From: Hydractinia symbiolongicarpus
Lineage: Eukaryota; Cnidaria; Hydrozoa; Anthoathecata; Hydractiniidae
Length of the DNA: 64,000 nucleotides
Assembly (NCBI RefSeq): GCF_029227915.1
Contig: NC_079883.1
Location: 19,840,001 to 19,904,000, forward strand
Reading direction: 5' to 3'
The position numbers and the translations under genes are program-made. The first letter of the stretch is position 1, and the number at the start of each line of letters is the position of its first letter. Under the pieces are notes generated by a model that ran no database searches, had not been told where the DNA came from, and was given only the letters and a program-made list of their open reading frames with translations. Of the stretch, positions 33,497 through 64,000 are shown piece by piece.

Positions 33497-33610
33497 TGTT
33501 GATATTGCGATTTGTGTTAATTCTGTTGTTATCTTTCAGTAACCAATACAATAGTATTAGAGACTGGTGAAGCCTTCAAGTTACCTCATCAAGGTAAGAA
33601 TCATTTAACA
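33497..33610 (+). repeat. Left LTR (114 bp)
   Basis: TG...CA ends; matches 38042-38155 at every position I compared. It must hold promoter and start site, but no TATA was assigned. Confidence 0.9.
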
Positions 33611-33611
33611 A

Positions 33612-33622
33612 TGGTAGCAGAG
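33612..33622 (+). promoter_or_regulatory. Primer-binding site, initiator Met tRNA type
   Basis: TGGTAGCAGAG starts two bases after the left LTR. Copia elements typically prime with an internal fragment of initiator tRNA-Met whose complement has this form. Confidence 0.7.
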
Positions 33623-33749
33623 TTAAAAGGTACAGATCAACTGGCCTGGTATTTATGATCATTGTGCGAGTGACATTTGAGTTGATAGTTTGTTGGCTAT
33701 TTGTTGACACGTGTGTGTGCAAACCAATTGGTGAAGTGGTTTGTGAACA

Positions 33750-34576: not shown

Positions 34577-35914
34577 ATTGTCTGTTGACATAGTAGAGAT
34601 TGAAATACCACTACTGATTAGTCGTAGTACCATGAAGTCTCTCAGTATGAAGTTAGATTTTACCAGTGACTTGGCCCTTATTGGGAAGGAAAGAATTAAC
34701 TTAATATGTACCACAACAGGACACTATTGTCTTCCACTAACACATTGTGATCTTGATGCTCAAAAAGGAACAAAAATCATTCTACATGGAGAAAATTTGA
34801 AAAATATTAGTAAGACAGAGAAAATGAAGAAAGCTATGAAACTGCACCGCCAATTCGCTCATGCTGGCAAAGATAAGCTACTCAAACTTGTAAAGGATAG
34901 TAATTTGTATGACAAGGAATTTTTGTCATGCATCGAAGAATGTTGCAATGATTGTGAAATATGTCACAGATATAAAAGGCCATACAGTAGACCAGTTGTG
35001 GGTATACCTCTGGCAAACACTTTTAATCAAGTAATATGTATGGATTTAAAGGTTTATGAACATAATAAACAACACATCTTACATATCATTGATGCTGCAA
35101 CTCGTTACTCTGCTGGATGTCTTATCAAATCGAAACATAAAGATGTCATTGTCAGTAGAGTGTTTAGATTTTGGATTGCATACTTCGGATCACCAAGTAC
35201 AATCTTGACTGACAATGGTGGTGAATTCTCGAATGAGGTTTTACAAGAAATGAATGAAAAGCTCAATATTGAGACAAAAACAACAGCAGGCGAATCTCCT
35301 TTCAGCAATGGTATTGTGGAAAGACATAATAAAATTCTGGCAGAGACCATGTTCAAGACAATTGAAGATACGAAGTGTGAACCAGACGTAGCACTAGCAT
35401 GGGCCCTCAGCGCAAAGAATTCTTTACAGAATCATGGTGGCTACAGCCCAAACCAATTGGTATTTGGCCATAATGTGAACACACCCACTATTCTGACAGA
35501 TCATTTACCAGCATTGGAGCCAACTACGTCAAGTGAAATAGTGAGAAAAAAATCTATCTGCTCTGCATAAGGCAAGGGAGAATTTCATTAAAGCAGAATC
35601 CAGTGAGAGAATTAAAAGAGCGCTGAGACATAATGTTAGAACATATTCTGATGAGACGTATTTGAATGGAGAAAAAGTCTTCTACAAGCGCAAAAACACC
35701 AAGGGTTGGAAAGGTCCAGGTGTGGTTTTGGGACAAGATGGTCAAATGGTGCTTGTCAGACATGGTGGTAACTTTTACCGAGTGCATCCCTGTCAGTTGA
35801 TGAAACATAGCCAAAATTGTAAAGTTAGTGAATTCAAGTCAGATCATGTCAAGAGGAAGGAAAGCCATTTGAATAAGTTGTGTGATATGAACGATAGCGT
35901 CAATGATTGTGATA

Positions 35915-35947
<33 letters not shown>

Positions 35948-37905
35948 GTGGTGATGATTATGATAATGATGATGATGATGACACAGCTGATAAGAATGTG
36001 ATAGATGTTTATGATGATTCTGAAGATGTAGAGCAATATCATCAAGAACAAGCTAGAAATGTAGACGAAAATGACCAAGAAGATTCTGGCACAAGTGAAA
36101 ATGAAGTTGAGGAAAACAGGGATACTCATAAAAATAATGAAACTGAAGAAGACGAAGGTAGTGGTTGTACAAGTGACATTTTCAGAAGACCATCTACAGA
36201 ATCCAAGAAAGTTCAATCGAAACCAAAAGCAAAATCATACATCAAATACAATCTAAATGGAAGATGGTATCGTGCAAGAGTTCTCTCAGCACAACCCAAA
36301 AGAAGTGGCACTTATAAAAATTGGGTTAATGTGTCTAATGATGGTGATAGAAAGCCAAAAAGCATCAATTGGAATGATGTGTCCAAATGGGTCGAGCTGG
36401 AAAATCCGGAACTCCCTGTCTATATGTGTGATGTCGATATGTTTTCACAGGAAGTAGTTGATGCGAAGGAGAGAGAATTGCAGAATTTAAAAGAAAATGA
36501 TGTCTTCGAAGAAGTTCCAGACACTGGTCAAACAACTGTATCAAGCAAATGGGTCATAACTGAGAAGTTCAAAGGTGAAAAAAAGGTTGTGAAAGCTAGA
36601 TTGGTGGCTAGAGGCTTTGAAGAAAATTCACAATCGTTGAGAACAGATTCTCCAACTTGTGGCAAACAAAGTCTTCGACTTGCTATGGCTATCATAGTTA
36701 GCAATGATTGGCAGATCAATTCACTTGATATCACTGCAGCTTTTCTTCAGGGAGATGCTATTGAAAGAGAACTGTTTCTACAACCACCAAAAGACACATT
36801 GTCATTGGGAACAGTGTGGAAACTAAAGAGATGTTTGTATGGGCTAAACGATGCATCTAGAGCATGGTACAAACGAGTGAGAAGTGAAATGTTGAAACTT
36901 GGTGGTGATTGGTGTACCTACGACCCTGCTGTGTTTTACTGGTATAGAGTCAAGCAAATCACTGGAATTCTTGTTTGCCATGTTGATGACTTTGTGTATG
37001 GTGGTAGCCCAGCTTTCCACAAAGAAGTTATTGCTAAACTTTTCGAAACGTTCAAAATCAGTACGCAATCAAGCTCAACCTTCAAGTATCTAGGATTAGA
37101 TGTGGATCAATTTAAAAGCAAAATTAAGATTAATCAAGTGAGCTATATAGAGTCTTTGATAACTGTTAATATTGAAAATGATGTTAACAATGAACGAAAA
37201 TTGACTAGCAAGGAAAAGACCATGCTGAGATCGTTGAGTGGGCAAATTGCTTGGGTGGCCGGACAAACCCGCCCTGATGTGGCTTATGATAGTTGCCAAA
37301 CGTCTAATTATGGCAAGGAACCTACAGTTCAAAATTTGAAAGATGCCAACAAGATTATTCGAAAAATTAAGAGCAAGCATGTTGCAATAACCATTGCCAA
37401 AATTGAAAATTTGAAAAATTGTGAAATTATTTGCTACACAGATGCAACTCATGCCAGTTTGAAGTGTGGATCATCACAAGGTGCATTCATCATATTTGTG
37501 AAACACCTGAGCGAAGTTATACCAATCTGCTGGCAATCAAAAAAACTACAAAGGGTAACCAAAAGCCCAATTGCTTCGGAAACACTTGCTCTGAGTGAAG
37601 GAGCTGATGCTAGTTTTTATTTGGCCAATGTCATACAGCAAATCTGCAAGTTGACGAAGGTTCCAAAGATCACTTGTATTATCGACAACAAGTCATTATT
37701 TGAAACCTTGAAAACGACAAATGTCACAAAGAATTTGAGATTGCGAGTTGATATAGCCAGATTGAGGCAGATGGTGGAACAAGATGAGATTACTGTCAAG
37801 TGGGTTGAAGGAAAACACCAATTAGCTGACTGCTTGACAAAACATGGAGCGTCTCCAAACAAGTTGCTTGAGGTTTTGGAGACATCCAAAATATCTCTAC
37901 AATAA
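34401..37905 (+). pseudogene. Copia Pol: integrase, RT, RNase H; protease core lost
   Basis: Frame one (to 35570) has IPLLISRSTMK and GHYCLPL, the segment that normally follows the aspartic protease, but no D(S/T)G site between it and the zinc knuckle, so a short deletion near 34500-34560 removed it. Integrase shows HRQFAH, CNDCEIC, Asp in ICMDLK, ILTDNGGEF and NGIVERHN (DDE complete). An A7 run near 35543 shifts the frame. Frame two (35662-37905) has a (GAT)n acidic tract (about 35906-35990), RT with SLDITAAFLQG and CHVDDF, and RNase H with CYTDATHAS and IASETLALSEG. RT and integrase look intact at their active sites. Confidence 0.9.
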
Positions 37906-38041
37906 TTGATTGTAGTGATTACCGTTGTGTTTTTTTTTTGATGATTTTAATTTGTTAGTCATGTTGACTATGACAAACTGTTGCAGCATGCAATTTGATA
38001 TTCTACTTGTGTTGGCTTTAAAATTGTGTTACTGGTGGCAA

Positions 38042-38155
38042 TGTTGATATTGCGATTTGTGTTAATTCTGTTGTTATCTTTCAGTAACCAATACAATAGT
38101 ATTAGAGACTGGTGAAGCCTTCAAGTTACCTCATCAAGGTAAGAATCATTTAACA
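38042..38155 (+). repeat. Right LTR (114 bp)
   Basis: Matches the left LTR without visible difference. Preceded by GGTGGCAA, a weak polypurine tract, and followed by the CTTGG duplication. Confidence 0.9.
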
Positions 38156-47399: not shown

Positions 47400-49130
47400 T
47401 CTGGACCCTCTGATGCATAACAGTTGACTTCTGAGAAGGCTGAAATTTATTCTGCATCTTTTTTACTTTTTAAGTTTCTTCGTTCCCCTTCTTGGCAACA
47501 AATTCTGCCAATCTTTTGAAACTTCCTTGGTCGACTTTGTTCACTCGATTGTTGTAGCTTTTTTTGTTTTGTTTTTTCATTTGACTTGTGGACTGCTTCT
47601 AGTGAATGAGTAAAATGGACTTTAGCTGTTGGGTTGAATACCTTAACATCTAAGTACGCTACTTGTCCCCTTACCCAGAAACCACGTGCGGCTTTGTCAA
47701 CTCAAGCATCGTCGGATTTTATTGTTGAGGCTGGTAGAGTCTCGCCAGTCAGAATTGGCTCCACCGAAACATCTTTACAGCATTCTGATAGCAGTTCAGC
47801 AGTGAAGTCTCTCAGTTCGTTGTGTCTGATAGATATAAATCCACCTTTCGGGCAATATAAAGCATGATCCAATTTGAAGAGTGTACCACATACTCAAGAC
47901 GTCGGAAGACGCTTCAAAGGAATGTTATATCGATTATATAAGCTGTTCCAGAACGACTGCTTGTCCAACAGAAAACCATAACGTTTAATTGGCAAAGTAG
48001 TAAGCCAATTAGAAGCTCCAATCTCGAGACTCGCTTTAAGACATCTTTTGCTGATCGGATCATTTAGCAGCAATTTTATTTCTTCCAGCTCATCATCCTT
48101 TCTCTTTTTCTTTTATGATCGAAACGAGCTACGCTTCGTGTTTTGTTCAGCTTCAACAGTTTCATCGTATATTTCATCTTGCTCTTTAACTTTCTCCATC
48201 ATAGTTTCCGTCACACATTTAGAGTTGTTGTAATCCACAATAAAGCGTTCGCACACATTGTAAATACCTAGTCCACCACCATGTTTTGCCGGAAGAGAAA
48301 TCATCTTTCTTTGTACGTCATTACATTTGTATCCATTTAAGATTGATTTTAGGAAACGTTTCCTAATCACTTCTTCTTAAGGTTGTAGATCAACAGAAAT
48401 GTCTGGCACAGTTCTCATTAAGTACGTAAAAATTTATGCTGGTAACCAAAAACAAAGAACGTATATGCTGAATGAGGAAATGCTTGTGCTATCCTGACAA
48501 CACTTCAATTTCTTTCACCCATTCTTGTACAATGTTCGTAACATATTTCTTTTCATATCCCTTACTGCCAATTATATCTCCAATATGTGGATTTCCCTCA
48601 GTTATGATTTGCACACCAGTACCTTCAAATCGACGAAAAGCTTCATTCACGTACTGCTCTTTAACAATCAGCCAACTTTTATCTCCTTTTGGATAATAAC
48701 CAATGTTTGGTCTATGATGAACAATGTTCTCCCACCATGACCTAACGCGTTTAGGTACATTATTACTGTTCTCGTCAAGGTCATGTAGATTCAACCGGGT
48801 CACCTTGAGTGGTATCTTCATTAGAACGTATGTCTTTTCCACCATATACAAACAGGCGAGCAGGTGATTGATAACAAATCTGTATGTAAGTAGCAAACTC
48901 TGGACACAGTAGATTAACATTATAAAGTGTCAACAGATGCATCAACGGCAACTTCGCATCCCGATCTCACACCAGCACATAATTGTAAATTTCCATTTGC
49001 ATTTATCATGTCTTTCCTAACGCACATAACGGCAGCTTTGCCAACAATTCGTCGGATCACTTCTCCGACACCGATTGGTCTTAAACCGGGATTCTTGTCT
49101 AACGGAATTAATCTACAGGAAAGAAAAGAA
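47400..49130 (-). pseudogene. Non-LTR RT element with restriction-like endonuclease
   Basis: On the minus strand from about 49130: [20 protein letters not shown] (RT start) and [14 protein letters not shown], then (48920-48489) PKGDKSWLIVKEQYVNEA and GNPHIGDIIGSKGY, then (48370-48113) LPAKHGGGLGIYN, and finally (about 47870-47630) RHNELRDFTAELL and RGFWVRGQVAYLDVKVFNP. The last part has a D...DVK arrangement like a PD-(D/E)XK endonuclease at the C-terminus, as in R2-type LINEs. The catalytic YADD region is not seen, probably deleted around 48900. Frames change at least three times. The exact clade is uncertain. Confidence 0.65.
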
Positions 49131-49463
49131 GTAATTATAGAGATGGGGGTACGAGGACAGTTTGGTAAACCAAACTTTCCCCAAACACCCCATATCTATA
49201 TCTACTTGTACACGCAATGGTAACAATTGTTATTTGCAAGCGCTCTGGACCGCAATGTCAACTGATGATCGTAAGGAGCCGACCAGGCTCGGAAAGTAAT
49301 CGCAGAGCGATGAGTGAGGCTCCCTTCCAGCTCGCAGTGGGTAGAAACGAAGTCTCGTAGGACACCAGAGCAAAACGTAAAATCATCTGGTTACATATGT
49401 TACATCCACATCCTTTAACCAACCAGTTTTACCACCAAATGGGATGTTTTAGCATTGGGGAAC
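49131..49463. other. Unassigned, hairpin-rich
   Basis: No gene; contains GAGCC-GACCA-GGCTC near 49276. It may belong to the end of the virus-like element. Confidence 0.35.
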
Positions 49464-49510
49464 AAAAGCGGAGCTTTTGTGATGCAGTGAATTGATCGCA
49501 AAGCGATCAA
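49464..49510. repeat. Two adjacent perfect hairpins
   Basis: ACAAAAGC-GGA-GCTTTTGT at 49462-49480 and TTGATCGC-AAA-GCGATCAA at 49492-49510. Both have 8-bp stems and 3-base loops, 11 bases apart. Confidence 0.8.
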
Positions 49511-49609
49511 GAGGGGATTTTTCTTTTTGCGATGTTATTTGATGGACCATATGCTACATACATACAATTTAACCGTTGGATGGTGTTATTTTATGGAATA
49601 ATGACGTCA

Positions 49610-49690
49610 TTGGGCATGCCCAGGCACATTTACTGTACTACTTATCATATGACGTGAGCATTGCTATTGTGACATTGGGCATGCCCAGAA
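49610..49690. promoter_or_regulatory. Duplicated palindrome TGGGCATGCCCA
   Basis: CATTGGGCATGCCCAG occurs twice (about 49611 and 49673), 62 bases apart, upstream of a TATA box. A palindromic pair at this place could bind a dimeric regulator of the downstream frame at 49871. Confidence 0.45.
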
Positions 49691-49708
49691 CATGTTCTTT
49701 TAAAAGCA

Positions 49709-49716
49709 TATAAATA
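49709..49716 (+). promoter_or_regulatory. TATA box TATAAATA
   Basis: TATAAATAGGGC lies about 160 bases before the VLTF3-like frame. A start site about 30 bases downstream would fit. Confidence 0.45.
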
Positions 49717-49870
49717 GGGCTTAAATATTTACTTTCAACACTATACTACTGTGATGTCGGTTACATCCGATGTCTAAAGCGTTTAAGACTTAAAGAAATA
49801 ACCTGTATGTATAGTATATTTTGGTGATACTGATGATATAAGTGAGGACGTCATAGATTGTACTTGTGAT

Positions 49871-50518
49871 GTGGATAAGATTAAGAGTACAACAGCATCG
49901 ACACTAGGTTGTCCACAATGTGGTGTAGTTAGTGATATTCCAGTTTATATAAATTCATACAGTGTTTTTGAACGTTGTACATTTCGGAAGAAGTGCATTT
50001 ACAAAAGGGATGGGAATTCCACTGTTATCCTAAAACAGTTCATATGTATGGAAGATCAAGTGGTACCTGATGATGTGATAAAAACGTTATGGAGTCAGAT
50101 TAATAATACAGACAATTTAGTATACAATTACGTTATACCACTCAGTATCCCCATACTAGAATCTCTATTAAAGAAGAACAAGTTGATGTACTATAAAAAT
50201 AGTATATTCTACATTTATTTCACATTAATGAATCAACCGTTTCCACATCTAACAATAGAGGAATGTAATCGAGTACAACATCTATATACTGTCATAAGTC
50301 GCTTATACAATAAGTACAAACCAAGTAAGAAAAAGACCTTTATAAACTATTACTTTACACTAAAAAAGATATTCCAAGCACTGGGTATGAATGATTATGC
50401 AAAAATAATTCCACAATTAAAAACACAATCTAGGCAAAAGGAAACAGAAAGAATATGGGGTTTAATATCTAAGGATTCCAAATGGGCTGAAGCTCTTCAG
50501 AAACAAATGATCTCTTAG
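49871..50518 (+). CDS. VLTF3-like protein of a virus-like element
   Basis: An open frame of 215 codons; upstream of 49871 it stays open to 49799 but has no in-frame ATG, so the true start may be spliced or lost. It has a CPQCGVV zinc-ribbon-like pair and C-terminal KKKTFINYYFTLKKIFQALG, then PQLKTQSRQKETERIW, resembling the poxvirus late transcription factor 3 (VLTF3) family of large DNA viruses. In those viruses the protein directs late transcription. Its 3' end overlaps by 50 bases the end of the integrase on the other strand. Similarity is judged by pattern only. Confidence 0.45.
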   Translation: MDKIKSTTASTLGCPQCGVVSDIPVYINSYSVFERCTFRKKCIYKRDGNSTVILKQFICMEDQVVPDDVIKTLWSQINNTDNLVYNYVIPLSIPILESLLKKNKLMYYKNSIFYIYFTLMNQPFPHLTIEECNRVQHLYTVISRLYNKYKPSKKKTFINYYFTLKKIFQALGMNDYAKIIPQLKTQSRQKETERIWGLISKDSKWAEALQKQMIS

Positions 50519-51440
50519 GACCAACATCCAAATAATATAACGTTGGTTGATTACTTTTAATGTATCTATCTTTTACTTTATATACGTCCACCGACCATAT
50601 TGGATCAGTAGATCGTTTTCGTCTTTCACCTTTATAAATTTGTCCTTCCATTTCACCGGGCTCATATAGATATCTAACGTTGGTACCAACATCTAGCAAT
50701 GTTTTATTATCACTTTTGATGGGCTGTGAAAATCCCTGTTTTATTAAGGTATGTTTTATGGCGTCTACTGGTTTCATATCAATTAGTCTGGTTTTTTCGT
50801 TATTCAATGCACTAACTACTGTTTGCAATCTACCAACCCATTCTCTATTACTTTTTGGTGGATCCACAAACTCTTTATGGTATTGATAACTAAATAGTCT
50901 ATCTGCTAATGTTCTATTAAATCGTTCGACAATACCTTGACTTCTATGTTGGCTGGAATCACCACGTCGTATTATGACATTGTGCTTGTTCATAAATTTG
51001 GTAACATCACCATAAAACTCCTTACCAGCATGACAAATCAATGTTTTGGGGCATTTTAGTTCAGTGTAAACATATATCCAATCAAAGGCTTCACCAGTTT
51101 CTTTTAAGCTTTTAAGTTGATATGCTGATTTATACCTACTAGCTACATCCACAACACAGAGAGCATACTTATATGTTTTTCTTTTGTACTTATCATGTGG
51201 AAGATACAAGACATCTACCTGGTGTATATCATTGGGTGTAGCATAAATAGAATATGAGGAATTGGGTCTCGGAACATACTTTGGTGCTGGTAGATATATT
51301 TGATACAGTGATTGTTTCAGTAGCCATTTTTCTGGTTCTTCATTGGTTGTACCAGCTTTTTTAGCTAACTTACTTATCGCACTTTTACCTCTCCAGTAAC
51401 CAGTATCAGAGTAGTAAATCTGATTAAATTTATCATCCAT
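50469..51440 (-). CDS. Retrovirus-like integrase, Polinton type
   Basis: A complete 323-codon frame with ATG at 51440. The core shows DIHQVDVLYLP (first catalytic Asp), TLICHAGKEFYG (second site) and SQGIVERFNRTLADRL (catalytic Glu). At the second site the usual D-x-G-x-EF motif has His in place of Asp, so catalysis may be lost. A C-terminal chromo/SH3-like stretch (DPIWSVDVYKVKDRY) follows. Such rve integrases insert Polinton/Maverick and related elements. It is convergent with the VLTF3-like frame and upstream of a membrane-protein frame on the same strand. No internal stop. Confidence 0.8.
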   Translation of the reverse strand: MDDKFNQIYYSDTGYWRGKSAISKLAKKAGTTNEEPEKWLLKQSLYQIYLPAPKYVPRPNSSYSIYATPNDIHQVDVLYLPHDKYKRKTYKYALCVVDVASRYKSAYQLKSLKETGEAFDWIYVYTELKCPKTLICHAGKEFYGDVTKFMNKHNVIIRRGDSSQHRSQGIVERFNRTLADRLFSYQYHKEFVDPPKSNREWVGRLQTVVSALNNEKTRLIDMKPVDAIKHTLIKQGFSQPIKSDNKTLLDVGTNVRYLYEPGEMEGQIYKGERRKRSTDPIWSVDVYKVKDRYIKSNQPTLYYLDVGPKRSFVSEELQPIWNP

Positions 51441-51497
51441 TCTTATAATATTAGCAGTTAAAAAACATACAGCAATTCATGGCAAACACTAATTTCT

Positions 51498-52036
51498 TTA
51501 TATCGCGTTTTTTAAATTGTGTGTTTCATCCATAATTTTTTTCTGATAATTTTCTTCAATAGTTGATTTCATTTTATCATCACGGTTTCTAATGCCATTA
51601 ATTACTTCAAGATAAAGACTCTGGAGTTTGCCAAATTCATTTGAATCTATTACGAAACCATGAGTTATTGATTTACTGATAAGTAGTTCGAATTTACCAA
51701 TAGAAGTGGTCAACTTGTCTAATAGCTCAACAGTTTTAGCAATCTTTTTGTTATACCTTTTGGAATAAAATGTTAATACTGATGATACGGCAACTGCTAC
51801 AGTGGCAACACCTGTCAGGGTAGCCCCAAGAGGTATGCCAACAGCAGTAAAAATACTACCAACACCAGATACTCCTGTTAGTATAGAAACAACAGATGCT
51901 GAAGTAGATGCATCACTTAATCTCTCATGTTTTTTTTAAATATTTGTCTTGCTTGCCTTCATACTTGTTTCTTAAATTAATCAAGTCTTCAAGATACTTT
52001 CTCACGGTATCAATATGAAATTGATCAGGTGAATTC
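51498..52036 (-). pseudogene. Glycine-rich membrane protein of the element
   Basis: The frame is open from 52036 (HIDTVRKYLEDLINLRNKYE) to a T8/A8 run near 51931, where a one-base shift moves it to the frame DASTSASVVSILTGVSGVGS, then FTAVGIPLGATLTGVATVAV, a Gly/Ala-rich membrane segment, and a soluble tail ending at 51498. A similar protein accompanies integrases of this type in cnidarian elements as I remember it; its role (possibly a minor virion or membrane-active protein) is unknown. The homopolymer shift may be a sequencing error. No ATG before 52036 was found. Confidence 0.5.
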
Positions 52037-52101
52037 AGTTACGGAGCGGTAGGTAATGTAGGCTATATTTTCTTGGTCATATATATATAGATTATAAAAA
52101 A

Positions 52102-52500
52102 ATGGCAAAAGGATTTGAACCATTAGATAAGGATGAATTTAATAAAATTTTTGATGAATCTAAAGATTATAATGATGATAGTGTATTAAATTTTGATAAA
52201 GAATATCGTCAGCAAAGTGAATTACAAACAAGGTTAAAAAATATTGATAAAGGTAAAATATCAGAAAAGCAAATTGCTAAAAGAGAAGAATTGATGGAAA
52301 AGATTAATAAAAAAAATGAAAAATTTGAAATGGAAAAAGTTAGGATGGCTAAAACGATAGTATCGAAACTGCATAAAGAATATGTTAAACTAAAAGAAAA
52401 TAGAAGGGTAAAATTTGCAGATGCAGAATCCAGTAAAATATTGTATGATAAGCTTGAATTTAAAGATGGAAAGATTTTATTCAATAGTGCAAAAGGTTAG
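52102..52500 (+). CDS. Charged, coiled-coil protein of the element
   Basis: ATG at 52102, 132 codons, AT-rich. Very rich in Lys and Glu (ISEKQIAKREELMEKINKKN), likely a helical or coiled-coil protein. A second frame (to 52627) reads KVRDLLIGAKFTTAKEYKII just after the stop, so the original C-terminus was probably longer and was lost by a shift near 52480. The function is unknown; the position suggests a structural or accessory protein of the virus-like element. Confidence 0.5.
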   Translation: MAKGFEPLDKDEFNKIFDESKDYNDDSVLNFDKEYRQQSELQTRLKNIDKGKISEKQIAKREELMEKINKKNEKFEMEKVRMAKTIVSKLHKEYVKLKENRRVKFADAESSKILYDKLEFKDGKILFNSAKG

Positions 52501-53570: not shown

Positions 53571-54330
53571 AAAAAAAACAGGTTCCCTTGTTTTGTGCAT
53601 CGGCTACATAAATTCAGAAACTCGTCCAAGCATGTACTGTATATGCAAAGAAGGAAAGCACTGTTGTTCTTGAGTGCGGGAAAGTTTCTACTTCCCTGTT
53701 TGTACACTTTTGTTCTAGAGTGCAGGGAAGCTTTTACTTCCGTGTTTGTAATAGATGTACTTATATTACATGGCTAGCTAGCTAAAGCTAAATAATGTTG
53801 CAGCTGATGTAACTGATCCTTTTTGAAAGCAGCGGTTGGCGGTAGCTTAGTCAAGAACATACTGAGCTTGTTCAGATTTCAGATAGATATAGCTAGTTAT
53901 ATATATAAAAAAATTAAAGAAGTTTTGTGGTTTGCCAATCAGGAAAAACTAACAATTAGCCTGTAACACAGAAGTATATAGTTAGCTTATACAGGATATA
54001 ATTATACTGTGTATACGTACCATATAATTAGCCTGTATTTGGTAACTATCAGCTTAAGGCTAATTATCAGTTCTTCCTGACTGTTTGTTTGCTGGTTTCA
54101 ATCTATAACGTTGTGATAAATCTATTATGAATTGAGGGGTAGTAAAAGGAACAGTACATTGGTAACTTCGTTGTTAGCTATAGCATTAAAATAGTCCATT
54201 GTTTTAAGATTCACAAAACGGCATTTTACTTTTACTATTTCTGACTGTTTCCAAAAAACTGTATTTTTAAAAATGACATCACATTTTGGATGCAAAATTC
54301 AAATAACGAATATTGTTTGATACTATATGT
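53571..54330. other. No supported gene
   Basis: A 60-codon frame at 53595-53777 has no motif and overlaps an internal near-duplicate (GAAAGTTTCTACTTCCCTGTT and GGAAGCTTTTACTTCCGTGTT words). Confidence 0.35.
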
Positions 54331-54667
54331 GGCGCCGTAGATTAGTGGTTATAGCTCTCGTACTCTGTGCGGGAGACCGGGGTTCGATTCCTCTTGACGG
54401 CGATTCAACATGGGCAAGTGAATGTTACCATAGCCCCGGGTTAACCCAAGCCATGTGAGGGAAATTGGGAAGATGGCACACTGTGTGGGCCGTTGGATGT
54501 TGCTGGGAGTTGTCTAGTAGAGCGCAGGCTCTAATTGGGTCTGCGTAGCTCAAAATGAGCATTAAATACTCTAGGACTCTCCATCTACGCCATGGCCCCT
54601 CCTGGAAATAATAGACAGGGTATATATATCCCTCGATATTTGTGAGGCTAGCCATGTAAAATATGCA
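54331..54667 (+). mobile_element. tRNA-derived SINE
   Basis: Head with A box TAGATTAGTGGTTATAGC and B box GGTTCGATTCC; ends of the head can pair (CGCCGT/ACGGCG), but the anticodon arm is not regular. The body has GTAGCTCAAAATGAGC (shared with the SINE at 30.0-30.3 kb) and CTCCTGGAAATAATAGACAG, then leads to the (ATCT)n tail. Confidence 0.8.
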
Positions 54668-54771
<104 letters not shown>

Positions 54772-55922
54772 CTTTTAAATTTTTTGTAGTTAACTTATTT
54801 TTAACGTTAAAGCTTACTTCACGTGACAAAAAAGTTTTAAATTGAAGCAATATTTGTTTGAATTTAACATTGTAGCCAACTTTATTAATAAAGAAATAAA
54901 ACAAGTTCAAAAGTTAAAAAAATATTTATTTGTTAAAGTTTTTGTATATTTTTACCAGTAGCTAACTTTTTTTTATGATTGGTATTTACTCAAGTCAAGT
55001 TTGTATGTTTTTATATTATTTCTTGTTTCCCTCACTCACCACATTTAATTGAGCTAACTTTCGGGATGTGACGTAGTGGAATTTACATGTAAAGAAAACA
55101 AAACAACACTGAGTAGAAACTGTGGAACACACTATGTTGTTTCATATGGAAAACTGTATGTTTTTATAAACTTTGTCCAGTGGTAGCTATTTGTGGTGTT
55201 CCGAATAAAATTATTTGGGTCACTCATGCTAAATCATAACATCCCTTCATCTCAGTTAAAATACTTTTTTATTAATTTCTTTCTAAATAATCTATTATGG
55301 GTCACAACTATCAAATCATGCCTAAGAATCAATTTTTACTCTATTTTATTGAAAAGGCTTTTATAGCAAACTTTGTTGCCACCTGATCTGCTCAGCTGCA
55401 GCATTCAAACTCTGGAACGGTGAGGAAAACAACAACAACAACAAACACGTGTTTGCCAGCTTACAGCAGTAGGTATTTTTAGTAACAAGGACAGGTTGTT
55501 TTAAGTTTTAGTATTGAAGTTTTGTCTTCTAAATTGGTTTTAAGATGATTAATACAGTGCAACTAGTTGTGCAGGGAGTGAATTGAATAAAAGAAGACTA
55601 TGTTATTTATACTCAGTTGTGAAAAGTCATATATCGTTGGGCTGCTCATTTTGACAAGTTTAAACGGACAAACTTTTTTGAGACAGAAGTTTATAACTTT
55701 AGGTGCAATTCATATATTGTGCGCTCTGAAAGTATTTGTTTTTTTGTCATTTTTTTGACAAAATTACGCTGATGCTGAATGTATAAGAAAAGGTTGGACA
55801 TTGATTTAGCGTTATTTTTACAGTGCTAATATTTCTCAAATTGTTGTGAAAAAACAGTATATATATGTACAATACAATTTTTTGCAAATATAGACATTAC
55901 TGATTTAGATATTACTAAAAAT
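54772..55922. other. Upstream region of the SET-recombinase gene
   Basis: AT-rich, no clear promoter. A (CAA)n stretch is at about 55428. 5' untranslated exons may lie here. Confidence 0.4.
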
Positions 55923-56847
55923 ATGACTGGAAAATATGGAAAGAGAGTAAGATTGTTATACTTTGTGTCAACAATACGCACTCTATAGAATATTTATGAT
56001 CACTAACCTTCTATTTTTTTATATTATTAGAGACTTTCGCCTGAGAAAGTGGCTGAGGCTTATATCAGGGCTGGCTGTGATCAAATGGGTTTACAGAAAA
56101 AATGGATCAATGAGATTAAAGGTGAAAAACTGCAAAAAATAAGAATTATGGGATCTATTCTGAAATAAAAATTGCAATTAATGGCTAAAAATTTTCATCT
56201 AGGTTATGGTGTAATATCAACAACTGATATAATGAAAGGAGGATTCATGGTCATCATTTAGAATGGAAACACATGCAGCAGAAAATGAAAACTTATTCTG
56301 TAAAAGAACGTTCATATATATTTGAATATGAAGTTAATAATAAAAAATACTGGTATGCACAACTCATTTGTATATAAGTGTTATATATAACTTATTTTCA
56401 GACTTAAGAAAGTAGACGTTATTTTACAGCATAGATGCAAGTAAAGACGATGGAACTTTGGGTCGGTTTGTTAATGACTCATTTTATTATCCCAATGCCA
56501 TAATGAAGCGGTTAGTCATCGAACGTTCCCATCACTTGTGTTTGTTTGCATTGGAAAATATCAATTCTGGAAGTGAGATAGTTTATTCCTACGGTGAAAA
56601 AGATTTGCCATGGCATAAAAATGTGTGTTTTTTTATTTTTTTGTTTTATCAAAGTGTAATAACAAAATAAAATGGCATTATAAAAATGTTTTTGCATATA
56701 TTCAGGAGCAGGCAAGGAAATTAGCTGAAAGAAAACAAAGCATTCTACCCAACAATAAAGAACAAAGAAAAAAAAGAAAATGTAATAACCTTCAGGAAAA
56801 ATTACCAGAGATTATATCAGAAAAAAAACTGGTATTTATATATATAT

Positions 56848-56878
<31 letters not shown>

Positions 56879-59800
56879 GATAGAGATAGAGAATGTTTAT
56901 GAATAAGCAATAACAATTTTGTATTATATTACTCCTTGGTATCATTGTAATGTAGTCATTTGTATGTGTAATTTTACTACAGGATGACAACTGGAAAAGC
57001 AATGCAACTCTTGGTAAGGTTTGAGGTGGAGGCTGGGATAATATACTTTGATATTTTAGTATTTTTACATGTCTGCTGGTAATTTTTTTTTTCAGAAAAT
57101 GTAGACTTTGAAGTAAACCACATAGGATCAGATATTGTTCATATTGAATGCAACCCTAATCATGCAAGTATTATTATATTGGTGTCCATTTACTTACAAT
57201 TTAATAATGAAATATTATATATTACATATGTTAAATACAAAAGTGTTGTTTTAATAGGGGAGTGAGAGTACTTCAAGTTTAGCTCCAAACAAGAAGGATA
57301 ATGATGATGACAACACACAAGTTATTGCAGATACGAGAGATACCATTGATTGCCAAAATGTAAATATATATATTTGTAACAATTATTACATTTTTTTTTG
57401 TATTTCAAAAACAGTTGTCCAATTACTTAAAATTTGATATTAAAATATATTACATATCTGTTAAATACAAAAATGTTATTTTAATAGGGGAGTGAGAGTA
57501 CTCCAAGTTTAGCTCCAAACAAGAAGGATAATGATGATGACAACACGCAAGTTATTGCAGATACGAGAGATACCATTGACTGCCAAAATGTAAATATATA
57601 TATTTGCAACAATTATTACATTTGTTTTTTGTATTTCAAAAACAGTTGTCCAATTACTTAAAATTTGATATTAAAATATATTACATATCTGTTAAATACA
57701 AAAATGTTATTTTAATAGGGGAGTGAGAGTACTCCAAGTTTAGCTCCAAACAAGAAGGATAATGATGATGACAACACGCAAGTTATTGCAGATACGAGAG
57801 ATACCATTGACTGCCAAAATGTAAATATATATATTTGTAACAATTATTACATTTATTTTTTGTATTTCAAAAACAGTTGTCCAATTACTTAAAGTTTGAT
57901 ATTAAAATATATTACATATCTGTTAAATACAAAAATATTATTTTAATAGGGAAGTGAGAGTACTCCAAGTTTACGTTTGAACAAGAAGGATAATGATGAT
58001 GACAACATGCAACTTATTGCAGATACGAGAGATACCATTGACTGCCAGAAAGTAAGTATATATTTTTAAGTAAATATTTAATAAATATATATCTCCATTG
58101 AATTATTCTAATGTTTGTTCTCCGGTACTTAATTTACAAGTATACTAACTTTCTTTAGCAATGTGTCAACTGCTTAACATTATGTACAGACCTGCACCAT
58201 TGCACCTATATTTCATGTTCTGATCGTCATTTAATGTACTGTCAATTTTGCTTTGATGATCATGTGTGCAAAAAGATTATTATATCACCAAGTTCAACTC
58301 CAAGGGAAAAAGATAATGATGATGACAAAATACAAGTTTATGCAGATACTAGCCATACCAATGAATGTCAAAAAGTGAGTATAATATTTTTAAAGAAATA
58401 ACAAGTAAATATATATCCAGTGATTTATTCTCATGTTTTTTAATCTCTGCTTACTTTACAAATTTACTAACCTTCTTTAGCAATGTACTAAATGCTCAAT
58501 ATTGTCTACATCTTCCGACTCGAATATCTGTTATATATTGTATTTTATAACACAATAAATTCGAAAATGTTTTTATCTAAGACTTACATGTTAATATTTT
58601 TAGATCGAGTCTGTAAAAGGAAATTTTTTAAAAAATGTTGGGGGGTAATTCTGAAGACATTAGTAGAAATATAGATTGTAATAATCAAGAGGTAAACCTC
58701 ATATGTCTATGTAATTTCTCCTGTGATAACACTTTCCTTAATTAACAAGATTTTCCATATGTATGAGATTTTTATGTATAAGATAAGAGAACCTGTGTAC
58801 TTCTTTTCTTAGGTCTATGCATAATTTTTTATTGTAATACTGTTGCGTAAGAGTTGTTTCTACCTCTCTTTAGAACAATTGTGTACAGTTTGTTTCAAAA
58901 AGAAGAAAAAAAGAAAGTCAGGTGCTGTCATTGTAAACGTTAAAATGATTTTGCATATTCATTTTCGCGATTGTGTTAAAGTTGATGATGGTTACAAGTA
59001 CTGGCAGTAAATCCAGAAAACTGCTTTCAGCTACCATGACATATACTAATTATTCAAAACTCATTTTCTTTTTAGAATAATTGTGAGGAGTTTGTTGTCA
59101 AAAGTGAAAAAGAAAAAGTTCAGGTACAAAGCTACTTCATTGAACATTATTTAATATAATCGCTTAGCTATATCCTGGTCTGTGTGTTGTATCTTTTAAG
59201 GATGAAATGCTGTTCAAAAACTTGATCCAAGAAATGAGAACAGGAAAGCCGCGGGAGGCTAAAAAGGTATGAATTTCCTGGAATTAGTACTGATGAGAAA
59301 GCGTTTTGAGCGTTTTTTAAAAAATCTGTCATTGCAGCTATAAACACTCATGATGTTATTGAGATTTTCTCTTTTAGATATTCTCAAGCTGGATGACCAA
59401 AAAAAGGTTCACAACAAGAACTGTTGATTGTCCATTTTGTGGAAAACCACAATCCAATTTAAAGTCTCATGTGATTCGTGTTCATAATTTAGATCCTAGT
59501 AACGCTAAAGCTCTCAGAAGCCAAACTAAAGATCTAGGTAAAAACAAAGTACAAAAGAAGCGTGTGCATCCTAAAAAGGTGTGCCCTGTCGCAACCTGCG
59601 GAAAAGTTGTCACAAGAATACACAATCACCTTAAAGATACACATCAGATTACCGATGTGATTCTATACAGGAAACTTTTACAAAGAGCAGAGACATATGT
59701 GGAACTTCAATCAGAGGAATCAGAGGTTTTATCGGAGTCTGAATCAGACGATGAAGCCGTTTTAATGAAGAAAATTTTAAAGCGTGGTGGTTATAAACAC

Positions 59801-62800
59801 TTGAAAAGGGTTCGCGATGTTCCGGTTGATTCTGAAGATAGTAGTGACGATGATTGGCTTGCAGTTAAATCATTCAAAATGTTCGGACCAACAAGTGGTA
59901 TGTGTTTTTGTCTAGATTGATTGTTTTCTCTATGCATTGATTTTGTATCGGTGAAAAAACTGATTTTTATTTCTAACATCAGCTCAAAATGTAGTTGTAA
60001 CAGATGGTATGGGCAATCCAGAGTATCCTGTTAGAAAAGTCCCCTCTTGCGACAAAACTATGAAAAATAAAGAATATCAAGGTTGATTTTTTTATTCTAA
60101 AATCGATTACATTCATAAGAGATTTGATATATTTTGTGTAAAAGATGTTTCAATCTGTATTGATTTATATAGAACAGTCTACTGATTCAGAAGAAAACGT
60201 CACCCAACAACATTCACCTCTTGTTCAAAATGTGACTACAATAGATCCTGAAATCACGATTGGTAAGCATAAACATAATAATAGTGATTAGTAATTTCAT
60301 TTTTTTTTTCGATAATAAAATGGTTAGTTATTTCTAATGACAATAGGTTAATCCTTGATATTGCTAATATATTATTCAGAATGTATATATAAACAATCTT
60401 TATTTGCACAGGTCAGATTGTAGATACAGAAAAAAGTACCATCCGACAGTCTTTACCGATTGCTGAAAATGTGATTGGCTGTGCCACCACAAAAAGTAAG
60501 TAAAAATACGTTTTACTATGGTCGCAATAAAGAACTCATCTGTTTTTTATCCCCAATTTTTCTCCTAATAGTCATTGGTTTCATGTTATACAGTAACATT
60601 CTTTTGTGAACGTCCCCTTTTTCATTTGTCATGTATTTTAAAAAGTGTTTTGATGTGAAAATATATGAATTGTTGAAAATTTGGTTTAAATTTTTTTTTC
60701 TGGTGAACAGTTAAATGTGTTAAGATTACATTAACAACAAAAATTTTCGGTCGAAAAAACTTGATGATTTTTTGATCTCCAAACATTTTCCGTCCGAAAT
60801 TTGTGTCAGCCGTAAGTTTTTCCGTCCAAAAAATTTGATTTTCCCAATTTTTTTAAAAACAAGATCAGTTTATAGAAATTATATACAAGGCAATCAGAAA
60901 ATCAATAAGAACTGCAGTTTTTATTTTCGTTATTTTCACATTTGGCTGAGGCTCTATCTATAAAGTTGGATCCTGAAGACCCTCTTTAGATTTTGATTGA
61001 ATATATGTACACTTTAAATGCTTCTAGCCTTCTTTTTGTATAATTTCCTGCAATCGTTAATTCTAAAATTTGATAAATTTGTTCAAAAGGCTTACGCACA
61101 AATTTTTTGACTTCATAAATCTTGTCCAAAAATTTCCGCTGAAATAAAAAATTGTTTTTGAAAGTTTTTCCGCTGAAACATTTTCCGCCAAAAATTTTAG
61201 TTTTTAATGTAGTTGAAATAACTGAGATTATGCATGAAAATATCTTGATATTTTTAAAATCAGGTGACCGTGGTTGTAATAGTGAGGATGAGATTTTCGA
61301 TAATGCCAAAAACGAAGAACGTGAGAGTGATGATGGTGATACCGCAGATGTAGAAGATGAAAATCTAGAGACGTTGATAACTCCATGGAAATCATCCCCA
61401 ATTCTAGAAACATTTTTTCAGTGGCTAATAAGCCCTGATGCTAAAGCAAAGCCTGCACGCCAGGCTGAACAGCATGTAAAACAAGTAATGGTAATACTCA
61501 AAGCATGTAGCGACAACACGTTCGAATTTCAACACTTGTTTGATAGGAAATGTGTCCGTGATAAGTGGCTGGTTCCTTTTGAAAATACTGATCGACTCCC
61601 AGCCACAGTAAAGGCTTACGTAACTTCGTTGCGATGTTTTTACATGTTTGTAGTCCATGATGAACCTGAAGCTTTGAAAGAATATGTCCACAAATGTGCG
61701 AGCCTTAATGTAACGTGTACAGACTGGATTGCCCTATATCGCAAAAAACAAAAGAAAGGTCGGTGGAAAAAAGATTTGGAGCAATTAACACAATTGTTCA
61801 ATGCGTCTGATATGAAGCAGCTTGACGAGTCTGAGATTGTTGCGTTCTGTAAAGAAACTCTAAAATCTGTCCGTTTTAAGGAGATTGCTCCTAGCTTGAG
61901 ACAGTTTAGCAATGTCAGGGACTACATCCTATTATACCTGTGTTTTGACAATGCTTCTAGAACTGGTGCTCTCGCTAACATGACTCTGAGAGAATTCAAT
62001 TCTTCCAGTTTCATAGATGGGTCGTATCGGATCAATGTTTTTGACCATAAAACTGTCACTACTTCTGGTCCCGCATGCATAGTTGTAACTTATGACTTGT
62101 ACCTGGACATGTGCACCTACGTCCAAAAAATACGAAATAAACTAGATGGTATTGATGCTGGTAAAAATTCGAATGTGTTCGTAAGTTGGAGTGGAAGCAA
62201 AATGTCTTCTTCAATGGTTACCGCACAAATTAATTCGTTTTGGGGCAAGGCGGTAGGACACACTGAAAACCGACCACGTGTGAGCGCTAATTTAGTCCGT
62301 AAATCAGCGGTGTCGAAAGTTCATAGTACGAGAAAGGATATGAAAGAAGATTTAGCAAATTTAATGTGCCATTCAGTCACAACAGCTGGGCGCATATATT
62401 ATCTTCAAAATAAAACAAAAAAGGCAGGAGAAACAAGTGCTGCCCTTCGTGACTTGCTACGACAGCAAGATCCCGAAGATGATCTTGAAGATTCCATCAG
62501 GAATCATTTTCATGAGGATATTAAAAAAGGAAAAATCACTCTGATGATTGTGCGAGAGAAAAAGAGCCTGAGTCCTGCTTTTGAGAATATCAGTGACATC
62601 TGTCTACGAGATAAAGTCAGATATGTAATCAGCAAAGGTTTGTATATTTTCTTCCTTACTTCTACTAAAAACTTATAAAGGTGCACTTAAAAATGCTTAC
62701 TGCAGAAGCAGAATATTTGTTGGACAATTATCCATTGTTGTGACTAAAATTAAAATATCAGAAATATTTCTCTTATTAAGAACGTTTGCCTTACGGGTAG

Positions 62801-63284
62801 AAATATATAACTCAAATTTTTACACTGAAAGTTTTATTATTCACCATAGGAATCACACAATAATTGTTCTTTTAAAATGTTTCGCGGGGATTATGTTAAT
62901 TGCGGATATTTAATTCCGTCAAAAATGTCTTTGACTTTAGATATGGCCAGTCAGTTTGAATCTAATGTAGCTGAAAGTGATACAGACGAAAGTGATGAGG
63001 AAAACAGCACCGAACTGCCACAATGGAAGACAAAAGGTAGAAAGGAACGAGTCGTGTTCACAAATCATGAAATCACACGCATTTACCTTCATTTCCAGCC
63101 TCTAATAACCGCTGATCGTTCGCTAAAAATTCGAATGAAAGAATTCAAATCACTTGTTGAAAAACGCGAAATCGAAGATATTCTCATTAAGTACGGTGAA
63201 GAGACACTTTTATCAAAAGTTAGAACGGAAAGAAAAAATTTCCTGCAAAATAAAAAGAGAAAAAGCGGCACTTTCAAAGATTAA
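55923..63284 (+). CDS. SET domain-zinc finger-tyrosine recombinase, 21 exons
   Basis: Exons: 55923-55946, 56031-56121, 56203-56352, 56430-56622, 56706-56831, 56983-57013, 57096-57181, 57258-57359, 57488-57589, 57719-57820, 57950-58051, 58159-58374, 58874-58921, 59076-59123, 59201-59266, 59378-59897, 59983-60081, 60173-60262, 60412-60495, 61264-62637, 62941-63284. All GT-AG with matching phases. About residues 15-150: SET like KMT5A (CIDASK, GRFVNDS, SGSEIVYSYGEKDLPW; the NHS motif reads NDS). 234-369: four 34-residue repeats. 370-410: Cys/His cluster. About 513-565: two C-x2/4-C-x9-H-x4-H fingers. About 800-1165: tyrosine recombinase with Arg (NASRTGAL), Lys (FDHKT), LVRK, His (LMCHS) and Tyr (RIYYL). 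C-terminal basic domain. Exon 3 has one frameshift near 56248. Its role in methylation plus DNA recombination is inferred from domains only. Confidence 0.75.
56248..56262 (+). other. Frameshift in the SET exon
   Basis: The frame before (KGGFMV) and after (GHHLEWKHMQ) differ by two bases, and about five residues of the usual SET strand (VVEY-type) are missing. GGTCATC at this place would allow deletion between direct repeats. Every other exon keeps the frame. Confidence 0.65.
56849..56892. repeat. (GA)n/(GATA)n microsatellite in intron 5
   Basis: GAGAGAGAGAGA then GATAGA repeats directly after the exon 5 donor. Confidence 0.9.
57258..58051 (+). repeat. Fourfold duplicated exon, unit about 230 bp
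   Basis: Four 102-bp exons (57258, 57488, 57719, 57950) with their introns repeat every 230-231 bases. Each encodes SESTSSLAPNKKDNDDDNTQ-like sequence ending DTIDCQN. Exons two and three are identical. The exons are symmetric (phase 0-0), so copies can be gained or lost without a frame change. Confidence 0.9.
58483..58556 (+). pseudogene. Dead second copy of the Cys/His exon
   Basis: After a TTTAG acceptor it reads QCTKCSILSTSSDSNICYI, similar to the start of the exon at 58159 (QCVNCLTLC), and then meets TAA. The gene model skips it. Confidence 0.55.
60727..61211. mobile_element. MITE in intron 19
   Basis: TACATTAACAACAAAAATTT at the left and TACATTAAAAACTAAAATTT as the inverse of the right end, then CGGTCGAAAA/TGGCGGAAAA. 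Many TTTTCCGTCC and TTTTCCGCTG words lie inside. It accounts for most of the largest intron. The target duplication is not clear. Confidence 0.6.
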
Positions 63285-64000
63285 TGCGTTAATGCTTGAC
63301 TTTTTTGTAATATATTTTTTTGTTTTCACACACATCTGTTTATTTTAGGAGAAGCCTTAATGTAAGGATTATTGACGCTACTTTTTGTTTATGTAATGTT
63401 TTTTCCCCCAAGTTTTCATTTATTATTTTTCTTGAAAGCTGTAGAGAAAACAAAACTTCCCTTGTTCGAACCATTGTCGTTCTATTGTCGAGGATAGGAT
63501 ACAGACGTTTTTACTAACTGTGCTCGTGTATTACATTTTAAACGCTATTTCGTTATTAATTGGACGTAAAACTAAGATGTTTTCACGTTATGAAGAAAAC
63601 GCAAGATGTTTCGTTTCCCAAGTATTTTATGCGATTTTTATTTTGTGTTTAAATATGCATTCTTTCCAATTTCTTAAACAAAATGTGTTTATTTTAAAGA
63701 AATAAATATTTCATTTGTTTGAGTTCTTGTTTGTAGTGTACGTATATTTTTCGAAATTTACTATAAAGCATGATTTTTTTTTTGATCAGGTTAGGTCGTA
63801 AAAGCAAATAAATTCAGTATCGTTAATCATGTTAATAGCATAAACAAGAAAAAGAGCACCTTTTGTCTTACAGAAGGCTTATATCACTTCATTCTAGTAA
63901 TAAATATAAAATGCATTACATTACTTTACGCGCTTCTTTACTTTCTTTATGCGTACTATAGGACGTTTCATTTCCCTAGTTGCCGTCGTCTAAATTTCCG
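63285..64000 (+). other. 3' UTR and downstream region
   Basis: Follows the TAA at 63282-63284. Short frames have no motif. Confidence 0.5.
63701..63706 (+). terminator. Polyadenylation signal AATAAA
   Basis: AATAAATATTTCATTTGTTTGAG: a canonical AATAAA with a T/G-rich stretch about 15 bases later, 417 bases after the stop of the SET-recombinase gene. Confidence 0.5.

What the first reader, a model, noticed from the sequence alone, without database searches (positions are those of the whole stretch)
55923..63284. One gene joins a KMT5A-like SET domain to a tyrosine recombinase
Twenty-one exons with consistent phases link a histone-methyltransferase-type SET domain, duplicated acidic repeats, zinc fingers and a YR integrase domain with all but one of the usual catalytic positions (R, K, R, H, Y; the first His of HxxR is Asn). 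Tyrosine recombinases in animals are mainly Cryptons, DIRS elements and domesticated Cryptons. A chromatin-modifying domain in the same chain could target or silence insertions, or be a domesticated fusion. I do not know a published description of this architecture, although I recall KMT5A-like multi-copy genes in cnidarian and fish annotations.
Basis: partly seen in the sequence, partly recalled or inferred. Interest (0 to 1): 0.88.

Follow-up and report, generated by a model that had tools for sequence, protein, structure and literature searches.

The report
Histone methyltransferase fused to DNA recombinase
An animal genome appears to hold a gene that joins a histone-marking enzyme domain, here damaged, to zinc fingers and a DNA cut-and-paste enzyme of the tyrosine recombinase type, which raises the possibility that some supposed extra histone methyltransferase genes are really mobile elements.

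Summary
The 5' exons encode a SET domain closest to KMT5A/SETD8 (best 14 of 42 PDB sequences listed, E 2.7e-11, read with X at two breaks). The 457-codon exon at 61264-62637 is a tyrosine recombinase (YR): p 1.5e-6 against a home-made Xer/integrase profile, reached by 0 of 3000 shuffles, with R, R, H and Y in register with the catalytic tetrad and Asn in place of the less conserved His. Pfam, PHROGs and PDB sequence searches gave no YR hit.

The 21-exon frame holds (1306 aa) but has two weak points. Exon 7 needs a GC donor, and exon 3 must skip the GxG part of SET; read from the homologous start, the frame meets a stop and a frame change. So SET is truncated or broken here, while YR is intact.

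That SET and YR share one transcript is inferred. Copy number and relatives could not be tested. A 2023 paper reports about 60 KMT5A-like genes each in Hydractinia and sea urchin, mostly with N-terminal SET; the longer ones share C-terminal ends. Its main text never mentions a recombinase.

Best reading: a copy of a transposon-like SET-zinc finger-YR family.

The parts
55923..55946 (+). exon 1 (first ATG of the chain, 8 aa)
   Evidence: start codon is inferred
56031..56121 (+). exon 2, N-terminal part of the KMT5A-like SET region
56203..56261 (+). SET-homologous segment with GYG (GxG motif; SAM-binding role recalled), excluded from the open chain; read in the SET frame it meets a TAG, and the frame changes before exon 4
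56262..56352 (+). exon 3 in the open chain (acceptor TTTAG, 3.6 bits, against 2.7 for the 56203 acceptor; both below the 95th percentile, 4.2, of 417 other AGs)
56430..56622 (+). exon 4, C-terminal half of SET (KYC-IDAS, RFVND, IVYSYGE)
56706..57163 (+). exons 5-7 (56706-56831, 56983-57013, 57096-57163); exon 7 followed by a GC donor (GCAAGT)
57258..58051 (+). exons 8-11, four tandem 34-aa acidic repeat exons with introns (unit about 231 bp)
58159..58374 (+). exon 12, Cys/His-rich module; a decayed partial copy starts near 58481 (translated by eye)
58874..59266 (+). exons 13-15 (58874-58921, 59076-59123, 59201-59266); exons 13 and 14 look like 16-aa repeats (by eye)
59378..59897 (+). exon 16, with two C2H2-like zinc-finger motifs (about 59429-59485 and 59582-59644)
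   Evidence: motifs seen directly
59983..60495 (+). exons 17-19 (59983-60081, 60173-60262, 60412-60495), linker
61264..62637 (+). exon 20, tyrosine recombinase domain. Catalytic positions: R 61959-61961, K 62049-62051 (register uncertain), N in place of His 62289-62291, R 62298-62300, H 62370-62372, Y 62397-62399
62941..63284 (+). exon 21, C-terminal tail and stop

Best explanation
The locus is one copy of a transposon-like gene family coding for a single long protein: N-terminal KMT5A-type SET domain, acidic and Cys/His-rich repeats, two zinc fingers, and a C-terminal tyrosine recombinase. By analogy with other YRs (recalled mechanism), the zinc fingers and recombinase arms would bind the element's ends. 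The active-site Tyr would cut one strand at a time through a covalent phosphotyrosine bond, and excision and reinsertion would go through a Holliday junction, moving the element as DNA with its introns. The SET domain, where intact, would mark histones (KMT5A type, H4K20) near the bound DNA, changing how the element is silenced or where it inserts. Shown: the domains, the catalytic residues, coding-like frame and codon use, and the break in SET. Inferred: a single transcript, mobility, activity of either domain, and the link to the published KMT5A-like expansions.
For: YR is real. The tetrad R-R-H-Y is intact in one unbroken 457-codon exon (the longest open frame in 300 shuffles of 54001-64000 was 178 codons). 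The human Crypton-derived DUF3504 domains, by contrast, all lost the Tyr and second Arg (PMC3212892, passages). Substitutions at the His that is Asn here are tolerated in Cre (PMC4381057, passages). SET is KMT5A-type. All 8 exon groups tested score best in the predicted frame under a codon model trained on exons 20-21. PMC10368294 section 9: many KMT5A-like genes in Hydractinia and urchin, mostly with N-terminal SET; 13 early-activated Hydractinia genes are non-adjacent and highly divergent; longer genes share SET and C-terminal ends between the two phyla; Nematostella has one KMT5A gene. Five of six Hydra orthologues have a truncated SET, as here. A multi-copy, patchy pattern fits mobile elements.
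Against: No second copy in the 64 kb window. No target-site duplication or long terminal repeat recognised; animal Cryptons also lack terminal repeats (PMC3212892 section 8). The only flanking direct repeat found is 16 of 17 bases, seen in 8 of 200 shuffles too. Twenty introns seem many for a DNA transposon (general knowledge). An intact Crypton YR frame that may be used as part of a host protein is reported in a bird ATF7IP gene, so a kept active site does not exclude domestication. Copy number could not be counted (genome search did not complete). It was not possible to check that the C-termini in PMC10368294 are YRs. The SET part of this copy is truncated or broken, so a chromatin role is not supported here.
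Confidence: 0.5

Rival explanations
1. A domesticated host gene family: an old fusion of a KMT5A-like gene with a Crypton-type YR, amplified by gene duplication, in which the YR serves as a sequence-specific DNA-binding or recombining part and SET as a chromatin effector, as in SETMAR.
For: Many introns and internal exon duplications look like a host gene. Between tandem unit 4 and units 1-3 the exon differs at 10-13 of 102 sites but the intron at 41-43 of 99-100, as under purifying selection. SETMAR is a precedent for SET joined to a transposase, and one SETMAR isoform also removes most of its SET by splicing inside a SET exon (PMC6715855, passages). PMC10368294 reports 22 predicted H4K20 methyltransferase genes activated early in Hydractinia. 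A bird ATF7IP gene may use an intact Crypton YR.
Against: Among units 1-3 exons are not better kept than introns (0-3 of 102 against 1-4 of 128-129), so the selection argument rests on unit 4 and its intron alignment. The catalytic tetrad is kept, unlike in the human Crypton-derived genes. Dozens of KMT5A-like copies in two distant phyla and a broken SET here fit mobile or decaying copies better.
Confidence: 0.27
2. Two neighbouring genes: a decaying KMT5A-like gene (55.9-58.4 kb) and a separate zinc finger-YR gene or Crypton-like element (about 59.2-63.3 kb), joined only by the reader's splice choices.
For: Open chains are easy to build in AT-rich DNA (shuffles reach 3141 nt and the reverse strand 3373 nt). 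The YR half has in-frame Met codons of its own in exons 15-16. The GC donor and the alternative exon-3 acceptor are special choices, and both exon-3 acceptors score no better than many other AGs.
Against: True-strand chain 4884 nt exceeds 200 of 200 shuffles, and the 5' part alone does too (1833 against at most 1419; reverse strand 1285). The exon groups prefer the predicted frame under one codon model. Long genes with N-terminal SET and a conserved C-terminal end are reported in Hydractinia and urchin.
Confidence: 0.18
3. A plain pseudogene (not exclusive of the other readings): a dead copy of such an element or gene with no present function; only the YR and zinc-finger exons happen to be still open.
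For: Stop and frame change in the SET segment; decayed extra copy of the Cys/His module near 58481 (translated by eye); weak exon-3 acceptor and GC donor of exon 7.
Against: A 457-codon and a 173-codon exon are fully open, and the catalytic residues are kept.
Confidence: 0.3

Closest known systems
Animal Cryptons (CryptonA) and Crypton-derived DUF3504 genes (KCTD1, KIAA1958, ZMYM2/3/4, QRICH1, WOC), PMC3212892 (abstract, sections 5 and 8, passages)
   Same: YR as the only recognisable recombination enzyme, no reverse transcriptase recognised nearby, no long terminal repeats; zinc-finger genes among the domesticated cases
   Different: The text holds neither 'SET domain' nor 'methyltransferase'. 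Animal Cryptons have no C-terminal domain, whereas here a 344-bp exon follows the YR exon. The human domesticated domains lost the catalytic Tyr and second Arg, which are kept here. Descent from Crypton was not testable (no Crypton sequences in reach).
KMT5A-like gene expansion of Hydractinia, Hydra and sea urchin, PMC10368294 (section 9 read, passages)
   Same: Mostly N-terminal KMT5A-type SET, followed in the longer genes by other sequence; many copies; C-terminal ends of longer genes conserved between Hydractinia and urchin; truncated SET in five of six Hydra orthologues
   Different: Read there as H4K20 methyltransferases; 'recombinase', 'integrase' and 'Crypton' do not occur in its main text. 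Whether our gene is one of them could not be tested; figures and supplements were not seen.
SETMAR (Metnase), PMC6715855 (passages), PMC6326780 (listing and start of abstract only)
   Same: SET domain fused to a transposon-derived enzyme; a splice form that removes most of SET
   Different: SETMAR uses a mariner transposase and one fusion in anthropoid primates; here the enzyme is a YR and the SET is KMT5A-type
Retrotransposons that took up cytosine methyltransferases, PMC5890265 (listing and start of abstract only)
   Same: Mobile element carrying its own chromatin or DNA modifier
   Different: DNA methyltransferase in retrotransposons of dinoflagellates and charophytes, not SET with YR
XerC/D, Cre and lambda Int tyrosine recombinases
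   Same: Catalytic tetrad R-R-H-Y in register; model of the query matches Cre, XerH and XerA in the PDB, but that model was built on a Xer-type alignment
   Different: 11-20% identity; Asn at the His-II position

Membership tests
Tyrosine recombinase superfamily | Profile similarity to YRs beyond chance | tested here: met
   NCBIfam XerD E 0.0014 (0.013 for the shorter piece), 18.1 bits against a curated cut-off of 329.6; own profile 14.1 bits, p 1.5e-6, 0 of 3000 shuffles reach it, best shuffle 9.7; against: no YR family hit in Pfam or PHROGs nor by PDB sequence
Tyrosine recombinase superfamily | Catalytic tetrad R-R-H/W-Y | tested here: met
   R61, R174, H198, Y207 of the query are the only invariant columns among 37 sequences; control: all four in register in 3 of 300 shuffled queries
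Tyrosine recombinase superfamily | First His of HxxR | tested here: not met
   Asn. Position known to vary; Cre H289 substitutions keep activity (PMC4381057 passages)
Tyrosine recombinase superfamily | Catalytic Lys in the beta hairpin | tested here: inconclusive
   HKT lysine aligns with the conserved Lys, three residues off, and Ser is placed there
Tyrosine recombinase superfamily | YR fold | tested here: inconclusive
   Single-sequence AlphaFold2 failed (pLDDT 38). With 34 Xer-type rows pLDDT 72, and the listed PDB hits are Cre, Xer and other YRs, TM up to 0.58, but that alignment biases the model
Crypton transposon | YR phylogenetically with CryptonA/F/I/S/V | not testable with these tools
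   no Crypton sequences reachable; protein database off
Crypton transposon | Multiple dispersed copies, defined ends | not testable with these tools
   The genome search unanswered (16 calls, last); no second copy within the window
DIRS-type retrotransposon | RT/RNase H next to YR, inverted terminal repeats | tested here: not met
   Eight further open frames of 81-143 aa in 54-64 kb on both strands have no Pfam hit at E <= 0.05; no convincing terminal repeats. The window ends 0.7 kb after the gene
KMT5A/SETD8 (SET domain) | Closest SET family | tested here: met
   The 14 best of 42 PDB sequences listed are KMT5A/SETD8, 2.7e-11 to 1.7e-10
KMT5A/SETD8 (SET domain) | Intact SET with GxG, NHS and catalytic Tyr motifs in one frame (motif roles recalled) | tested here: not met
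   GYG segment not in frame with the rest; NHS reads NDS; the YSYG tyrosines are kept

The most novel reading that the evidence does not exclude
A new class of animal DNA transposon that moves by a tyrosine recombinase and carries its own KMT5A-type histone methyltransferase. The reported expansions of 'H4K20 methyltransferase' genes in hydrozoans and sea urchins would then be largely copies of this mobile element, switched on at genome activation together with other transposons.
Probability: 0.38. Interest if true: 0.87.

Novelty: new variant of a known kind. Interest (0 to 1): 0.66.

Why it matters
If SET-YR genes are a mobile family, a published gene-family expansion (KMT5A-like genes in Hydractinia and sea urchin) would need rereading as transposon activity. 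It would also give a case of a DNA transposon that brings its own histone-marking enzyme, an animal counterpart to retrotransposons carrying DNA methyltransferases. If instead the gene is domesticated, it would be a recombinase-based counterpart of SETMAR with its recombinase residues kept. Either reading is testable with RNA-seq and genome assemblies.

Tried and rejected
Rejected: chance origin of the YR exon (300 shuffles). Rejected: DIRS element (no RT or RNase H recognised at 54-64 kb). Rejected: terminal inverted repeats; a 39-nt pair at 54899-54937 and 63694-63732 is 72% complementary and AT-rich, taken as chance (no shuffle test). Left open: a 16-of-17 direct repeat flanking the gene. 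Rejected as evidence: the single-sequence AlphaFold2 model (pLDDT 38). Rejected as strong evidence: phase consistency alone, and the comparison of exon codon scores with introns, since off-frame exon scores also often exceed introns. One search was a faulty first version of the splice-chain control (a cached set was reused); its numbers are not used. One search had two wrong exon ends, put right. Led nowhere: relatives of the YR in viral and prokaryote collections (none confirmed) and motif scans (1 and 5 stretches; best tblastn E 0.30). The 49-residue N-terminal SET piece alone has no significant PDB hit, best E 0.11 to an unrelated protein; it adds score only together with the rest.
Full report
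What was checked. The window is AT-rich, repeat-rich DNA with introns and an innexin-like open frame (Pfam Innexin E 3.4e-12), so it is taken as animal. The record is unnamed and I did not identify the species.

Gene model. I rebuilt a chain of 21 exons from 55923 to 63284: 3921 bp, 1307 codons with one stop at the end, so 1306 aa. Two choices in it are special. Exon 7 must end at a GC donor (GCAAGT). Exon 3 must begin at 56262, 59 bases inside a segment that is SET-like (GYGVISTTDIMKGGFMV). From the homologous start (56203) the frame meets a TAG and then changes before exon 4. The two acceptors score 3.6 and 2.7 bits against a matrix from the other 19, whose own scores are 0.8-11.7; both lie below the 95th percentile (4.2) of 417 other AGs, so splice strength does not decide. 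Either a short splice form without the GxG part is made, or the SET domain of this copy is dead. SETMAR offers a parallel for the first: one isoform splices out most of its SET inside an exon (PMC6715855, passages).

Is the chain more than chance? Partly. A permissive splice search gives 4884 nt on the true strand, 3373 nt on the reverse strand, and 2217-3141 nt (median 2691) in 200 dinucleotide shuffles. For the 5' part alone it gives 1833 nt, 1285 nt on the reverse strand and 735-1419 nt in 200 shuffles. So open phase-consistent chains are easy to build, yet this one is longer than all shuffles. A codon model trained on exons 20-21 scores each of eight groups (exons 2-4, 5-7, 8, 11, 12, 13-15, 16, 17-19; exons 1, 9 and 10 not tested apart) best in the predicted frame, at 0.06 to 0.45. 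The 400 intron windows all score lower (maximum -0.12), but several off-frame exon readings do better than introns too, so that comparison partly reflects base composition (exon GC 0.378, intron 0.255).

SET. The exon-4 stretch hits Pfam SET (3.8e-8) and KMT5A chains (1.4e-4). Exons 2-4 read with X at the two breaks give KMT5A/SETD8 at 2.7e-11 (14 best of 42 sequences listed), the next at 2.2e-9 and the rest 2e-5 or weaker. The NHS motif reads NDS and the YSYG tyrosines remain (motif roles recalled). The N-terminal 49 residues alone find nothing significant.

YR. Exon 20 holds a single open frame of 457 codons; the longest open frame in 300 shuffles of the 10 kb was 178 codons. Pfam, PHROGs and PDB sequences give no recombinase hit, but NCBIfam XerD does, weakly (E 0.0014, far below its cut-off). 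A profile built from 108 Xer-type sequences plus lambda Int scores it 14.1 bits, p 1.5e-6. Of 3000 residue shuffles (2345 gave a reported score) none reached that, best 9.7; of the 101 open frames of 80 or more codons in the window, the YR frame scored 13.5 bits and the next best 3.0. Profile-profile alignment gives P 4.6e-5 and puts R232, N342, R345, H369 and Y378 of the exon opposite XerD R148, H244, R247, H270 and Y279. In a plain MAFFT alignment with 36 bacterial and phage YRs the only invariant columns are R, R, H and Y, and the query has all four. As a caution, 3 of 300 shuffled queries also reached all four. The Lys is uncertain in register. Asn at the His-II position need not kill activity: that position is less conserved, and Cre H289 substitutions stay active, although the matching Flp change blocks recombination after cleavage (PMC4381057, passages). 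AlphaFold2 without relatives failed (pLDDT 38). With 34 Xer-type rows it gave pLDDT 72, and the PDB search listed Cre, XerH, XerA, Tn1549 Int, lambda Int and other YRs, but that alignment steers the model, so it is consistent, not independent.

Other parts. Exons 8-11 are tandem copies of a 231-bp unit. Units 1-3 differ at 0-3 of 102 exon sites and 1-4 of 128-129 intron sites; unit 4 differs from them at 10-13 of 102 exon sites and 41-43 of 99-100 intron sites. So the exon looks kept only against unit 4, whose intron is shorter and may be misaligned. Exon 12 is Cys/His-rich, and exon 16 has two C2H2-like motifs (seen directly; Pfam below cut-off). Eight further open frames of 81-143 aa in 54-64 kb have no Pfam hit. 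There are no convincing long terminal repeats. A direct repeat of 16 of 17 bases flanks the gene (55088-55104 and 63440-63456); 8 of 200 shuffled flank pairs hold one as good, so it is a lead, not a finding.

Relatives and copy number. No relative was found in viral or prokaryote collections, as one would expect for an animal gene. The protein database was off and the genome search did not complete (16 tries, last), so copy number, conservation and insertion sites are untested. This is the main gap.

Literature. PMC10368294 (section 9 read; passages) reports as many as 65 KMT5A-like genes in Hydractinia, 24 in Hydra, 61 in sea urchin and one in Nematostella. Most of the Hydractinia genes have N-terminal SET; longer genes share SET and C-terminal ends between Hydractinia and urchin (E below 3e-43 for the C-termini). 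Of six Hydra orthologues all but one have a truncated SET. The authors read them as H4K20 methyltransferases, and 'recombinase' and 'integrase' do not occur in the main text; I did not see its supplements or figures. Kojima and Jurka (PMC3212892; abstract, sections 5 and 8, passages) describe animal Cryptons without a C-terminal domain or terminal repeats, and human Crypton-derived domains that lost Tyr and the second Arg; they also report an intact YR frame in a bird ATF7IP gene that may be used by the host. None of the 10 searches, some with cut lists, showed a paper on SET joined to YR by title or opening of abstract; most papers of subscription journals and all bioRxiv preprints are missing from the library.

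Conclusion. The two domains are real. That they form one protein is likely (my estimate about 0.8) but needs RNA. The intact tetrad, and the published multi-copy, patchy, conserved-C-terminus pattern (if it is the same family), favour a transposon-like family; introns and the kept exon repeat leave room for a host gene family. In this copy the methyltransferase half is probably not functional.

Noticed in passing
55088-55104 and 63440-63456: Direct repeat of 16 of 17 bases flanking the gene; 8 of 200 shuffled flank pairs hold one as good. Could mark the ends of a YR element of about 8.4 kb, or be chance.
   Followed up: partly
33497-38155: Copia-like retrotransposon with two 114-bp end repeats that are 100% identical and long gag/integrase/RT-like open frames (labels by eye): looks like a young insertion.
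   Followed up: no
48489-52500: Cluster resembling a Polinton/Maverick: VLTF3-like open frame (Pfam Pox_VLTF3 4.1e-17) facing an integrase-like open frame at 50472-51476 on the - strand (integrase label by eye; no Pfam hit at E <= 0.001).
   Followed up: partly
4747-9771: DUF6589 open frames (Pfam 6.1e-15 and 9e-19) next to an oppositely oriented RecQ-like helicase (Helicase_C 2.4e-13); possibly parts of one mobile element.
   Followed up: partly
776-2037: PIF1-like helicase (1.3e-16) and DUF6570 (1.7e-5) on the - strand, Helitron-like (label recalled).
   Followed up: partly
58087-58510: The exon 11/12 junction is duplicated (58087-58188 and 58409-58510, 77%): a decayed second Cys-rich exon near 58481 runs into a stop (translated by eye). 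The middle of the gene seems to have grown by repeated exon duplication.
   Followed up: partly
54330-54771: SINE-like stretch with tRNA-like sequence by eye (ARAGORN finds no tRNA), ending in an (ATCT)n run of about 26 copies, 1.2 kb upstream of the gene.
   Followed up: no
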